Assembly (NCBI GenBank): GCA_003139975.1
Contig: PLHN01000217.1
Span: forward strand, 1 to 10,171
DNA: 10,171 bases
From: Acidobacteriaceae bacterium
GTDB lineage: Bacteria; Acidobacteriota; Terriglobia; Terriglobales; Acidobacteriaceae
Direction: 5' to 3'
Below the pieces are notes generated by a model. It worked only from the letters and a program-made list of their open reading frames with translations. It was not told where the DNA came from and did no database searches. This document shows positions 661 to 10,171 of this stretch, one piece after another; position 1 is the stretch's first letter, and every line of letters starts with the position of its first letter. The translations under genes and the position numbers were made by a program.

Positions 661-963
661 CTATTGAAGGGTATGGGAGCCGACCTCAGAGCCGGGAGCT
701 TGTGCTTTCTTATTGTTGAGGACCGTCGTAAGCATTTTGTGAAAATCGTCCAATGCGGCCAGGGGCATGACTAAGCGGCCAATAACCACGCGACTTTTAG
801 AAGCTGGATCTGTCGTATGATCGGCCTTGGCAGAGGCGAATGTGATTCGGAAAGTATTATGGACCGAATAGCAACCTACGACCTCATCCGCAAACATGTC
901 GCGGGCGTATGGATTATCGAGAAGAGTCAGTTTTGCTTGTTGCTTCGGGGCGAGCTTTGACAT
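661..963 (-). CDS. Small DUF3467-like protein
   Basis: The product has 100 residues, the usual size of DUF3467 proteins. It begins with a basic head (MSKLAPKQQAKL). The core reads NPYARDMFADEVVGCYS followed by a strand of the FRITFA type, then a conserved-looking hydrophobic strand (RVVIGRLVMP) and a helix (LDDFHKMLTTVLNN). That order matches my memory of DUF3467: an acidic 'FAD/G-V' start, a beta strand ending in TFA, a V-V-x-R-x-V-x-P strand, and a C-terminal helix. The family has no established biochemical role that I know of. The protein has no membrane segment and is probably cytoplasmic. AAGGA lies about eight bases before the ATG. The gene follows the upstream membrane-protein gene by 31 bases, so it is probably the fourth gene of the AAA+ cassette. 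Confidence 0.7.
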   Translation of the reverse strand: MSKLAPKQQAKLTLLDNPYARDMFADEVVGCYSVHNTFRITFASAKADHTTDPASKSRVVIGRLVMPLAALDDFHKMLTTVLNNKKAQAPGSEVGSHTLQ

Positions 964-994: not shown

Positions 995-1969
995 CTATTG
1001 GCCAGCGTCAAATGATTGTTTGAATTGCGGCCAGAGGGAAGCAGCCCATTGCTTGAGTCTTTCGACATAGGCGAGCTTGTCGGGATGGCGGTGGATATTA
1101 GACACATACCAATCAGAATCCACAAAAGAAAGCGCCGTGCCTGATGTAATCTTCTCCACCTCAGGATTGAACAAGTAGACAGCGGTTATCAGACCCCACT
1201 TCTCGGCTCGGATAAAACGAACGCCAACCATGTCCTGGGGATAAAGTATTCCCTTCGCATCCATATTCCCAGCTGCCGCCCGTTCGATATTGTTCATCTT
1301 TTCCGAACGATCAGCCCATTTGTGCCATGAAGAACTAAACCAGTCGTAAATCATCCAGCAGGACTGGACGTGAGCGCCCTCGCCTGAGGCGCACTCGGGG
1401 GACTTGAAGAGTGCGCTTTGCTTAGCCCAGTTCAGCTTTTCGCCGCCGTCGGGTACGCTTGGTTTTGTTCTGACAGCCGTTATTATGAGCCCCTTGACGA
1501 GCTGCTTGTGTACGATTGTGCCGAGAAAATAAACCACGCCTGAACTCTTGGCTGAAGTGATTTTGGCGGCAGCCAGCAGCGCCCAATCATCGCCAGTAAG
1601 CGGTATTTTGAAGCCATTTACGGTAACCGAGCCATTGAACAAGCGCCCCAGCGTGGCCGCATCGAGGCCTGTTTCGCGTTTTATTGCATCGTTTTCAGTG
1701 TTGTTGGCGGTAGAGAGGGAGAGATCCGCGGTTTGAGGTGCTGACCGTCCCGCGTCGGCGACGGAGGGAGAGGCCGGCGCTTGAGGTGCATAGGTTGCTG
1801 TTGCGGACAAGGTCTTGGCGTAGTCATCTGGCGGTGGCTCGCCTGGCGGGAACAGAATAAACAGCAAAGTCAGTAACGCGGCAGACATGAATGAGAACCG
1901 CCATAAGGGCGCGCGACGCCACAAGGAGGTCATTGTCCCAGGAAAGGATACAGTCTCGGACACCGTCAT
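995..1969 (-). CDS. Single-pass inner-membrane protein with periplasmic domain, cassette partner of the AAA+ ATPase
   Basis: I do not recognise a family for this 324-residue protein. A short cytoplasmic head with basic residues (LWRRAPLWR, 16-24) precedes one transmembrane helix at about 25-41. An Ala/Pro/Ser-rich linker (about 42-90) then leads to a folded domain of about 225 residues that should lie in the periplasm. This domain has two cysteines at 193 and 204 that could form a disulfide, and a tryptophan-rich segment (W205, W210, W215, W218). There is no lipobox and no cleavable signal. The ATG at 1969 overlaps the stop of the upstream ATPase gene as ATGA, which argues for translational coupling and a shared complex. 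A later ATG at codon 13 is possible. The topology matches the 225-residue protein encoded at the other side of the ATPase gene. Confidence 0.75.
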   Translation of the reverse strand: MTVSETVSFPGTMTSLWRRAPLWRFSFMSAALLTLLFILFPPGEPPPDDYAKTLSATATYAPQAPASPSVADAGRSAPQTADLSLSTANNTENDAIKRETGLDAATLGRLFNGSVTVNGFKIPLTGDDWALLAAAKITSAKSSGVVYFLGTIVHKQLVKGLIITAVRTKPSVPDGGEKLNWAKQSALFKSPECASGEGAHVQSCWMIYDWFSSSWHKWADRSEKMNNIERAAAGNMDAKGILYPQDMVGVRFIRAEKWGLITAVYLFNPEVEKITSGTALSFVDSDWYVSNIHRHPDKLAYVERLKQWAASLWPQFKQSFDAGQ

Positions 1970-3213
1970 TCTTCGGCCCTGGCTATCACTGCGCCGTTGA
2001 AAGAGACCAGCGATACCCTGACATGACCCTTCTGTTTCGCCTCAATCAGCGTGTCTGCAATCGATTCTTCCACCGCACGCACCAAGTCTCTTGATGAAGC
2101 GCCAGCGCCGCGCTTTTCCTGATTGCGCATCATATCCAACAGGACTTCGGGAGCTATCCCTTTTTCGGCAATGCCAAGGCCATAGCTTTGAATCATCCCT
2201 TCGATTTCGAGAGCCGTAACGCGGGCGATGTCGAGACCCGATAGAGGCTTAAAGACCAGGATGCGATCGATGCGATTGAGGACTTCAGGAGCGAATCCTG
2301 CCTCCCGTAGCGCGTTGGTGGCAGCGCGGCGGAGTTCATCCGAATTGTTCGCGTATGTGATGCTGAGCGACTGGAGGGAATCCGTAGCGGCATTCGTGGT
2401 TAACATGAATATGGAACCTGTCGTCGATATCTGCTTGCCGTCCGATGCTTCCGTAATAAACCCGTCGTTCCACGCAGTGAGAAAATTCTTATGCACCTCG
2501 GAGTGTGCCTTTTCGAATTCGTCGAGCAAAACTACGGCGTCGGGTGTGTCGCGCAGGGACCCGGTGAGTTTTCCATAGGAATCAGATCCCACATAGCCTT
2601 TTGACGAACCAAACAATTGGGTTGCACCGTGACCGCCACTTGAGAATTGCGTCATGTCGAAGTGCAGGAGTTTGCGGGAGAGCTCAATCGCCAGGCGCTT
2701 TGCCAAATATGTCTTACCGGTCCCCGGTGGACCCGCAAGCATGAATACGCCTACCGGCTTTCCGCGCTGCTTCAGCGCCAGGCGCCTTCGGACCTGAGCT
2801 GCGATATCATCACAAACGGCGTCCTGGCCGATTACCTTGCTCTTGAGGCTGACAGCCAATTGTTCGGTATCAATGAATACAGCTTCAGGTTCTTTGGCTA
2901 TCTTTTGCTCTAGAACCTGACGATTTGTCAAACGATCAAGTATGTCCATCAACCATCCCTTCTCTTTGCGGCTGGCATTGCTCTGGCGCTCATGAAAAAC
3001 ACCACAGAAAGTAAGTAGCCAGAATAATGTCGCGGACCCCAGTACCACCCAAGCATGACGCTGTATGAGGATGCTTGTTGCATGAATATAGGTTCCGATA
3101 GTCCCGCTCGATGGACCATATTGCATACAAAACTGGGCGATGGCAATGCAAGCCATCACAAGAAATGCAACGGGCATGAGCCTTGTTGCTGCAGATATCA
3201 ATGACCGCGTCAC
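1966..3213 (-). CDS. Membrane-anchored AAA+ ATPase of the ClpA/ClpB second-domain type
   Basis: The 415-residue product has two transmembrane helices at about 13-30 and 53-71, then a cytoplasmic linker and one AAA+ module of the Clp/Hsp100 D2 class. Visible motifs are VIGQDAV (127-133), Walker A GPPGTGKT (161-168), an aromatic pore loop GYVG (Tyr208), Walker B with D231-E232, sensor-1 N274 in TTN, an arginine finger at R314 in VLNRID, and a sensor-2 arginine around R375 in the small C-terminal domain. All catalytic elements therefore look intact, so an ATP-driven threading or remodelling activity is likely. The Clp N-domain and D1 ring are absent, and I see no ClpP-docking IGF/IGL loop. The start is GTG at 3213, overlapping the preceding stop as GTGA. 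An ATG at codon 13 would remove part of the cytoplasmic head. It is co-translated with two bitopic membrane proteins. The substrate is unknown. Confidence 0.88.
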   Translation of the reverse strand: MTRSLISAATRLMPVAFLVMACIAIAQFCMQYGPSSGTIGTYIHATSILIQRHAWVVLGSATLFWLLTFCGVFHERQSNASRKEKGWLMDILDRLTNRQVLEQKIAKEPEAVFIDTEQLAVSLKSKVIGQDAVCDDIAAQVRRRLALKQRGKPVGVFMLAGPPGTGKTYLAKRLAIELSRKLLHFDMTQFSSGGHGATQLFGSSKGYVGSDSYGKLTGSLRDTPDAVVLLDEFEKAHSEVHKNFLTAWNDGFITEASDGKQISTTGSIFMLTTNAATDSLQSLSITYANNSDELRRAATNALREAGFAPEVLNRIDRILVFKPLSGLDIARVTALEIEGMIQSYGLGIAEKGIAPEVLLDMMRNQEKRGAGASSRDLVRAVEESIADTLIEAKQKGHVRVSLVSFNGAVIARAEE

Positions 3214-3887
3214 CTTATTCTTACTCTGAGGCTCAAGACCTCGCCTTCGCTCATGATCGGAAAAACTGCCTTGGACGCGCCGGAGGCCACGCCGACCGTT
3301 ATGCCACCCCCATCACCGTCGCGAATGCCGGTAACAGTGATAGCGTCATCCTGCGAAACGGGAACCGCAAAGGTAGTGGGCTCCTTTTTTAATACAACCG
3401 TTCGGGAATACCCCTGTGTATCAATTCGCACCACGTCACCATCTTCCGTATCCGTGTCCCAAAGCGTTATCCACGTAAGCCGGAGTTCATGCCTGTGCCC
3501 TCCTGCGGGATCAGGTAGCGCCGAATGTTGAATGGAAGGCGTCTGGGGGCTTTTGGCCAATTCATCCATCAGCGCCTGTCGTGCGGCAACAGAAAGCTGC
3601 ATGGCATCAACAGCATTGGATATGCCTTGTTCTGGGATGGGCGTCACTTCCATCGGGCCAAGCGCGTTAAACGCTGCGAGACGTTTCTGTTGCTCCTCCA
3701 CGCTTACGTGATCACCGTGCTGATAAAACGGCAGGATTTCTGAGCCGTGAATGAAATATGTTCCGCAAGTAATTGCGCCAACCACTACGCCGGTAAGAAG
3801 AAGTGATCTATAAAAAGTAGGGAATGATGGAGCCCTCTTGGGCTGTTCTGTAGGTCGTAACTGCGAAGACTGCAAAGGTTTGGTCAT
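3210..3887 (-). CDS. Single-pass membrane protein with beta-rich, aspartate/glycine-rich outer domain
   Basis: I recognise no named family in this 225-residue product. A basic, proline-containing cytoplasmic head (1-27) precedes one transmembrane helix at about 28-46. A helical region (61-112) follows, then a C-terminal beta-rich domain from about 133 to the end. This domain contains two acidic turns, DTDTEDGD (144-151) and RDGDGGG (189-195). They resemble calcium-binding loops, but the spacing does not match a canonical EF-hand, so calcium binding is only a guess. The domain should lie in the periplasm. AGGGG stands eight bases before the ATG. The gene is first in the cassette, 108 bases after the HlyD-like gene, and its stop overlaps the GTG of the AAA+ gene by four bases. 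Together with the 324-residue protein it likely frames the ATPase in the membrane. Confidence 0.75.
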   Translation of the reverse strand: MTKPLQSSQLRPTEQPKRAPSFPTFYRSLLLTGVVVGAITCGTYFIHGSEILPFYQHGDHVSVEEQQKRLAAFNALGPMEVTPIPEQGISNAVDAMQLSVAARQALMDELAKSPQTPSIQHSALPDPAGGHRHELRLTWITLWDTDTEDGDVVRIDTQGYSRTVVLKKEPTTFAVPVSQDDAITVTGIRDGDGGGITVGVASGASKAVFPIMSEGEVLSLRVRIR

Positions 3888-9719: not shown

Positions 9720-10171
9720 ATGTCGAAACTGATTCTCGGGCGCAGCATCGCTGCATCTCGCGGGATGGGCTTTTCCGCGCGAGCTCATTCCGATGCCGGC
9801 GAGCTGGTGACTTACTCGGGCGATGGCCATCTCATCACCTTTGCCCCGACACGCACGGGCAAGACATCCGGGCCGGTCATCACGAACGCACTTACTCATC
9901 CCGGACAGCTTGTCGTTCTCGACCCGAAAGGCGAGGTCTTCGCAGCAACCGCGCGCGCAAGGCGGGCAATGGGCCAGGATGTATGCGTTATCGATTTGCG
10001 GGACGGAAGCGAGAGCGGTTCGCTCAATCCGCTCGATTTGACGATGCGATGCGGGACGGACCCGGCAGCGACGGCGCGCAGCTTCGCGGCGGAACTCATC
10101 GAGCGTCAGGGCGATGAGCGCGACAGGTTCTGGAACGACTGGTCGGAGACGATGATTGCCGGTGCGACTGC
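9720..10171 (+). CDS. VirD4/TraG-family type IV coupling ATPase (5' part, runs off the window)
   Basis: The frame from the ATG at 9720 is open to the window end, giving 150 codons and no stop. CGAAGG stands five bases upstream. Visible features of the TraG/VirD4 (T4CP) ATPases are a P-loop APTRTGKTS (42-50), with Ala in place of the first Gly, the strand-loop VVLDPKGEVF (65-74) that normally follows it, SLNPLDL (101-107), and an FWNDWSETMIAGA helix (137-149). These proteins feed DNA-protein complexes or effectors into a type IV secretion channel. The N-terminus starts almost directly with the ATPase core and lacks the usual two transmembrane helices. The frame upstream to the previous stop (9609-9611) adds none either. 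It may therefore be a soluble, TrwB-core-like or divergent member. The Walker B and the all-alpha domain lie outside the window. Confidence 0.85.
   Translation, partial: MSKLILGRSIAASRGMGFSARAHSDAGELVTYSGDGHLITFAPTRTGKTSGPVITNALTHPGQLVVLDPKGEVFAATARARRAMGQDVCVIDLRDGSESGSLNPLDLTMRCGTDPAATARSFAAELIERQGDERDRFWNDWSETMIAGAT

What the first reader, a model, noticed from the sequence alone, without database searches (positions are those of the whole stretch)
1966..3887. Translationally coupled membrane AAA+ cassette with two periplasm-facing partners
Three genes (225, 415 and 324 codons) are joined by 4-base stop/start overlaps. The middle one is a ClpB-D2-like AAA+ ATPase with all catalytic motifs, but with two N-terminal transmembrane helices in place of the Clp N-domain and D1 ring. 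The two flanking products are each single-pass with an outer domain. The layout implies a fixed-ratio envelope complex in which a cytoplasmic threading motor acts next to or on membrane or periplasmic components. No ClpP-docking loop is visible, so remodelling or export is more likely than degradation. I know of no described system with this set.
Basis: partly seen in the sequence, partly recalled or inferred. Interest (0 to 1): 0.78.

Follow-up and report, generated by a model that had tools for sequence, protein, structure and literature searches.

The report
Unnamed three-part membrane AAA+ motor cassette
Three neighbouring bacterial genes encode a motor protein anchored in the inner membrane and two partners predicted to face outward; they stay together across distant genomes, and some lineages that lost one partner also lost the motor's ATP-burning parts, which points to an undescribed membrane protein-pulling machine.

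Summary
On the minus strand, P1 (225 aa), an ATPase (415 aa) and P3 (324 aa) are joined by 4-base overlaps. The ATPase is a ClpB/ClpA-D2-type AAA+ domain behind a two-helix membrane hairpin, with all motor motifs and no ClpP-docking loop. P1 and P3 are single-pass, with predicted periplasmic domains.

The trio is a conserved module. Of 113 Acetobacterales genomes carrying the ATPase, 111 have P1 upstream and P3 downstream; 35 of 40 larger loci sit beside rimP-nusA-infB. A sister clade, which includes the window, is sparse and accessory. P1 and P3 match no named family in four profile libraries.

New here: five Acetobacterales genomes keep P3 and a catalytically degenerate ATPase but have no P1 at the locus. 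A NusA tree gives four events (at least two well supported). In the one pair tested, the degenerate ATPase is still under purifying selection.

I read it as a protease-less membrane-protein dislocase or remodeller, built like FtsH-HflK/C but unrelated to it. P1 is tied to the ATP-driven step; P3 and the ATPase form a scaffold. Function is inferred, not shown. The window's type I secretion genes and coupling protein are not general neighbours.

The parts
3210..3887 (-). P1: 225-aa single-pass membrane protein, positive-inside N-terminus, three-helix region and C-terminal beta sandwich
   Evidence: ORF; TM; AlphaFold2 model pLDDT 83, helix 23-47, strands 136-224; no named family; 216 homologues at E 0.001 or better
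1966..3213 (-). ATPase: 415 aa, two-helix N-terminal membrane hairpin plus one ClpB/ClpA-D2-type AAA+ module with its C-terminal small domain
   Evidence: 1851 hits among 8000 scored candidates, the 120 listed at 68% identity or more over 79-100% of the query
995..1969 (-). P3: 324-aa single-pass membrane protein, disordered Pro-rich linker, outer domain with a conserved cysteine pair and a Mog1/PsbP-like arrangement (weak match)
3210..3213 (-). GTGA stop/start overlap P1-ATPase
   Evidence: read
1966..1969 (-). ATGA stop/start overlap ATPase-P3
   Evidence: read

Best explanation
The three genes encode one inner-membrane machine. The ATPase is tethered by its two-helix hairpin and forms, as its D2-type relatives do, a ring on the cytoplasmic face. 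P1 and P3 stand on the periplasmic side. The ring grips a polypeptide with its conserved pore-loop tyrosine and pulls it out of, or away from, the inner membrane. No protease domain or ClpP-docking loop is present, so the outcome is extraction or remodelling and not degradation: it works like FtsH-HflK/C with the protease removed. P3 and the ATPase body form the lasting scaffold. In Acetobacterales P1 is kept only where the ring can hydrolyse ATP, so it is most likely the substrate-presenting or activating subunit. Shown: gene order and conservation, motifs, purifying selection, co-loss of P1 with catalytic motifs. Inferred: hexamer, topology, physical complex, substrate class and direction of pulling.
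For: Trio in 111 of 113 ATPase-bearing Acetobacterales genomes, in several unrelated settings: beside rimP-nusA-infB in 35 of 40 large Acetobacterales loci; in other surroundings in L007, L153, L154, L155 and L166, G850 and the window. In the accessory clade, 29 contig lengths are shared between the P1 and ATPase hit lists against a shift-control mean of 0.8 (maximum 4), and 7 of 21 between P3 and ATPase against 0.125 (maximum 2). In 113 Acetobacterales ATPases: Walker A 111, Walker B 111, sensor 1 111, arginine finger 112, pore GY[VIF]G 109, sensor-2 pattern 93. dN/dS 0.01-0.30 for all three genes wherever it could be computed in eight pairs. Five genomes without P1 at the locus all carry ATPases with degenerate catalytic motifs, in four events on a NusA tree. 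One such pair keeps dN/dS 0.05 for the ATPase. Positive-inside bias in accessory P1 (53 of 60) and in P3 (16 of 21 accessory; 89 of 113 Acetobacterales). A cysteine pair in the outer domain of P3 in 112 of 113 and 21 of 21 fits an oxidising periplasm.
Against: No complex model could be run. The Microvirga plasmid relative (L005) has an ATPase with near-intact motifs (pore GYSG, and the arginine-finger box reads LSRID), no P1 and only a short P3-like stub, so P1 is not universally required. The Methylorubrum plasmid version (L006) keeps P1 although its ATPase fails the Walker A, pore and arginine-finger patterns, and it lacks a P3 homologue; this too breaks the P1-catalysis rule outside Acetobacterales. 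Retention of degenerate ATPases shows that part of the function does not need ATP. P1 and P3 of Acetobacterales are far from the accessory ones: the accessory profiles alone found P1 in 37 and P3 in 67 of 116 loci, and the rest came by iteration. Absence of P1 elsewhere in the five genomes was not tested. No substrate is known.
Confidence: 0.48

Rival explanations
1. Accessory of the type I secretion system next door: the motor unfolds or clears T1SS cargo.
For: TolC, HlyB-type ABC transporter and HlyD lie directly upstream on the same strand (9014-3996), with 108 bases between the hlyD stop and the P1 start.
Against: 0 of 40 large Acetobacterales loci hold a TolC or HlyD relative; 34 of 40 have an ABC ATPase matching HlyB, and those I read in four loci are not T1SS sets. 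The annotation of L005 and L006 shows no T1SS.
Confidence: 0.12
2. Part of a conjugative or mobilisable element, for example entry exclusion or envelope preparation for transfer.
For: A VirD4/TraG-like coupling protein starts at 9720 in the window. In Methylorubrum plasmid pB146-2 a MobQ relaxase and coupling protein lie beside P1-ATPase. The accessory clade is sparse among species representatives: 1 of 399 (the window's own genome), 0 of 369, 0 of 399, 1 of 220 (the search centre itself).
Against: The largest clade found is mostly at one site beside translation genes, and none of 40 large loci has a coupling-protein relative. The window's coupling protein is on the other strand, beyond the T1SS genes.
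Confidence: 0.14
3. Anti-phage or other conflict system using a Clp-like ATPase.
For: Weak PADLOC hits to PDC-M37B (79 bits) and DolB (74 bits); sparse accessory distribution.
Against: Those hits cover the AAA domain region only (residues 92-281), and P1 and P3 have no PADLOC hit at E 0.1. The Acetobacterales locus is stable, which is unlike a defence island.
Confidence: 0.08
4. Chaperone-like export or assembly motor that helps fold or insert inner-membrane or periplasmic proteins; pulling from the membrane is not its main act.
For: Same architecture and conservation; retention of degenerate ATPases in five genomes fits a holdase or scaffold.
Against: The conserved pore-loop tyrosine and full motor motifs favour threading.
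Confidence: 0.18

Closest known systems
ClpB/ClpA/ClpC/ClpE D2 ring (Hsp100)
   Same: AAA_2 module, motifs and pore loop GYVG; about 30-38% identity to ordinary Clp proteins
   Different: Single ring, no D1 and no Clp N-domain; two-helix membrane anchor instead; no ClpP loop; separate clade on a long stem in a FastTree of 51 family and 30 Clp rows, stem support 0.65
FtsH with HflK/HflC
   Same: Two N-terminal membrane helices on a cytoplasmic AAA+ ring, plus two partners that extend into the periplasm (FtsH/HflK/C facts from abstract starts listed and recall)
   Different: Clp-type instead of classical AAA, no M41 peptidase hit, partners without an SPFH hit, hairpin loop only about 24 residues
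Torsin
   Same: ClpB-D2-like single AAA+ module with membrane-protein partners (recalled); Pfam Torsin 26.4 bits
   Different: Below the Pfam cut-off of 27; torsins are lumenal (recalled), here the ring is predicted cytoplasmic
DolB (Dodola defence) and PDC-M37B
   Same: Clp-like AAA ATPase, 74-79 bits
   Different: Match limited to the AAA region; no partner match

Membership tests
ClpB/ClpA/ClpC (Hsp100) | D2-type AAA_2 domain | tested here: met
   PF07724 108.2 bits, cut-off 27
ClpB/ClpA/ClpC (Hsp100) | NCBIfam equivalog cut-off for ClpA, ClpB, ClpV | tested here: not met
   155.4 against 993, 149.4 against 1232, 131 against 885 bits
ClpB/ClpA/ClpC (Hsp100) | N-domain and D1 ring | tested here: not met
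   415 aa with one AAA module starting near residue 115; hairpin before it
ClpP-partner unfoldase | IGF/L docking loop after sensor 1 | tested here: not met
   0 of 113 Acetobacterales and absent in the window; 3 of 120 accessory proteins have such a tripeptide, two in the later REVGFAPEV helix and one in an N-terminal membrane helix
FtsH | M41 zinc peptidase domain | tested here: not met
   no peptidase among the 25 shown of 34 Pfam hits; protein ends after the small AAA domain
FtsH | two N-terminal membrane helices | tested here: met
   by hydropathy in the window and in 122 of 129 family members
HflK/HflC | SPFH domain in the partners | tested here: not met
   P1 only a PsbX hit at E 0.72; P3 no hit at E up to 1
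Type I secretion system | conserved linkage to TolC/HlyB/HlyD | tested here: not met
   TolC and HlyD in 0 of 40 large Acetobacterales loci; not testable for most accessory-clade loci
Type IV secretion / conjugation | conserved linkage to the coupling protein | tested here: not met
   0 of 40 large Acetobacterales loci; present in the window and L006; not testable for most accessory-clade loci
Torsin | Pfam gathering score | tested here: not met
   26.4 bits against 27
Mog1/PsbP-like fold (P3 domain) | structural match well above background | tested here: inconclusive
C2/PLAT/CBM60-like beta sandwich (P1 domain) | structural match well above background | tested here: inconclusive

The most novel reading that the evidence does not exclude
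An undescribed inner-membrane machine: a protease-less, Clp-type analogue of FtsH-HflK/C in which, in Acetobacterales, P1 is the obligate partner of the ATP-driven cycle, and in which the P3-ATPase scaffold has a second, ATP-independent role that has been kept alone, as a pseudo-ATPase, in several lineages.
Probability: 0.35. Interest if true: 0.77.

Novelty: new variant of a known kind. Interest (0 to 1): 0.62.

Why it matters
The best-known membrane-anchored AAA+ machine of bacteria, FtsH, is a protease. A widespread Clp-type ring with its own membrane hairpin, no protease and two dedicated periplasmic partners would add a second design for handling inner-membrane proteins. The repeated joint loss of P1 and catalysis, with the scaffold kept, gives an unusually direct genetic handle on which partner belongs to which step. 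Nearly half of the Acetobacterales genomes sampled (113 of 250) carry the ATPase.

Tried and rejected
Tried without yield: the genome-contig scan with alignment A1 filled up with Clp proteins of 30-38% identity because the patterns chosen were generic; only L007 (54%) was a clear relative. The viral scan gave only short partial AAA+ matches. Three steps meant to reach Burkholderiales carriers failed, so the genomic context of the accessory clade is known only from the window; the plasmids L005 and L006 and G850 are deeper relatives. Profiles of P1 and P3 against PDB sequences gave nothing credible. Foldseek gave no match at E 0.001 or better for P1 or P3; absence from those lists excludes no fold. 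Paper searches for a description of the cassette found none; only search listings and abstract starts were seen, no paper was opened. Composition of the window (GC 0.563; tetranucleotide correlation 0.778) lies within the range of 16 usable of 20 contigs of its genome, so composition gives no sign of mis-binning and does not prove residence.

Considered and rejected: chance gene neighbourhood; decay artefact (dN/dS); a ClpP-type protease partner; one single loss event for all P1-less genomes: the NusA tree gives four events, with G900 beside intact G872 at bootstrap 98, so at least two are robust; the others rest on supports of 64-82.

Full report
On the minus strand it reads TolC (9014-7599), an HlyB-type ABC transporter with a C39-like domain (7593-5458), HlyD (5468-3996), then P1 (3887-3210), ATPase (3213-1966), P3 (1969-995), a 100-aa and a 121-aa ORF. 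A VirD4/TraG-like coupling protein begins at 9720 on the plus strand and runs off the end. The stop/start overlaps GTGA and ATGA are as described.

The ATPase is one D2-type Clp AAA+ module (Pfam AAA_2, 108 bits; best PDB match ClpE residues 431-728, with ClpB D2 constructs close behind) behind two hydrophobic helices. All motor motifs are present. No ClpP-docking tripeptide follows sensor 1 in the window or in 113 of 113 Acetobacterales relatives; of 120 accessory relatives 3 gave one, two in the later REVGFAPEV helix and one in an N-terminal membrane helix through a false sensor-1 match. In a FastTree of 51 family members (30 of the Acetobacterales sequences, 18 of the 120 accessory proteins, the window and two plasmid relatives) and 30 ordinary Clp domains, the family is one clade on a long stem (support 0.65). 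The accessory clade with the window has support 0.995, and accessory plus 29 Acetobacterales sequences 0.999; G850 and the two plasmid relatives branch outside these.

Co-occurrence. The A1 profile found the ATPase in 113 of 250 genomes of the order of L007's genome, taken as Acetobacterales, at E 1e-50. Locus DNA was fetched for all 113. P1 and P3 profiles built from accessory sequences alone found P1 in 37 and P3 in 67 of 116 loci (113 plus window, L005, L006); after iteration both partners lie on the same strand within 600 bases of the ATPase in 111 of 113, and the other two lack P1. In 35 of 40 large Acetobacterales loci the trio sits beside rimP, nusA and infB; in five (L007, L153, L154, L155, L166) it sits elsewhere, and in G850 it is followed by a phosphoribosyltransferase/PQQ-propeller gene. 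For the accessory clade no further contigs could be fetched, but P1 and ATPase hits share 29 contig lengths (shift control mean 0.8, maximum 4) and P3 and ATPase hits share 7 of 21 (control mean 0.125, maximum 2). Exceptions: the Microvirga plasmid relative has no P1 and only a short P3-like stub; the Methylorubrum plasmid relative has P1 but no P3 homologue.

Elsewhere the family is sparse: 1 of 399 genomes of the window's own class (only the window's genome), 1 of 41 close relatives (only the window's genome), 0 of 369 of the class of a Woeseiaceae genome, 0 of 399 of a probable Burkholderiales set, 1 of 220 of the class of L007's genome (only the centre). Searches had no positive control in the set, and only up to four first-look candidates per genome were scored. 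One search's threshold also misses degenerate ATPases, so 113 is a lower bound.

Selection. In eight locus pairs, dN/dS was 0.01-0.30 for all three genes wherever it could be computed; synonymous sites of P1 were saturated in one pair, and P1 is absent in another.

Co-loss. The two Acetobacterales genomes without P1 (G941, G969) also have an ATPase that fails the Walker A, Walker B, sensor 1 and pore-loop patterns. A P3 profile was then run on 76 of the 137 ATPase-negative genomes plus 4 positive controls; all 4 controls and 7 of the 76 matched. Three of the seven (G900, G892, G839) have, at the same rimP site, P3 and a strongly degenerate ATPase, and no P1 by profile. The space between ATPase and rimP starts is only about 165-250 bases in these loci (coordinates), too little for P1. 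The other four are a match at a contig end, where an ATPase could not be seen (G957), P3-like domains in other proteins (G927, G863) and a marginal hit (G902). The motif changes differ between lineages: G900 keeps a possible Walker A but lost Walker B; G892, G839, G941 and G969 have altered Walker A; the sensor 1 asparagine and the pore loop are gone in all five. On a NusA tree of 38 genomes these cases form four events if loss is irreversible; G900 is sister to intact G872 at bootstrap 98, the deeper placements have supports of 64-82. The G941/G969 ATPase pair still shows dN/dS 0.05, so there it is a kept pseudo-ATPase and not a decaying gene; the other three were not tested. Within Acetobacterales, P1 presence and an intact motor therefore go together in 116 of 116 loci assessed (111 with both, 5 with neither), counting conservative pore variants in G884 and G883 and the LSRID box in G850 as intact and leaving G957 out. 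Outside that order both plasmid relatives break the rule: Microvirga has near-intact motifs without P1, Methylorubrum has P1 with an ATPase that fails the Walker A and pore patterns.

Mechanism. From the motifs and the architecture I infer a ring that threads polypeptides on the cytoplasmic face of the inner membrane, with periplasmic partners, in the manner of FtsH with HflK/C but without proteolysis. The co-loss pattern in Acetobacterales assigns P1 to the ATP-driven step and P3 to the scaffold. Complex formation, substrate and direction are not shown. The T1SS operon and the coupling protein in this window are local neighbours: 0 of 40 large Acetobacterales loci have relatives of HlyD, TolC or the coupling protein.

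Known or new. No profile library names P1 or P3, no PDB relative was found for them by sequence, and the paper searches found no description (listings only). I file it as a new variant of a known kind: a membrane AAA+ machine of an unnamed type.

Noticed in passing
L151, L152, L249, L250, L251 (rimP locus): Five Acetobacterales genomes keep P3 and a catalytically degenerate ATPase while P1 is missing at the locus; four events on a NusA tree.
   Followed up: yes
L252:8671-10053: A P3-like domain is fused behind a signal-peptide-like start and a domain that looks by eye like a ClpP/crotonase-type periplasmic protein (COG3904-like, recalled; no Pfam hit at E 0.1).
   Followed up: partly
L253:4609-18865: Three P3-like domain ORFs (two with Pfam DUF2061 hits; one P3 match weak) lie around an HlyD-like gene in one Acetobacterales genome.
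   Followed up: partly
L233:1022-8006: A divergent trio in G850 is followed by a phosphoribosyltransferase/PQQ-propeller fusion gene and a 384-aa ORF without Pfam hit; none of 34 other genomes of its genus matched the ATPase at E 1e-40.
   Followed up: partly
window 9014-3996: Complete type I secretion operon (TolC, HlyB-type ABC with a C39-like domain whose usual Cys appears replaced, by eye, HlyD) directly upstream; no cargo gene recognised within the window.
   Followed up: partly
window 9720-10171: VirD4/TraG-like coupling protein, cut by the contig end, that appears to start without the usual N-terminal membrane helices (by eye).
   Followed up: no
window 661-963: 100-aa ORF after P3 with one plasmid relative (35% identity, Rhizobium beringeri pRlX2), with no trio annotated in the 16 kb around it.
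   Followed up: yes
L006:8695-11627: Methylorubrum plasmid pB146-2 has P1 and a shortened ATPase with altered Walker A and pore loop, followed by a Pro-rich single-pass ORF and a secreted, coiled-coil-like protein in place of P3 (by eye), beside MobQ and a coupling protein.
   Followed up: partly
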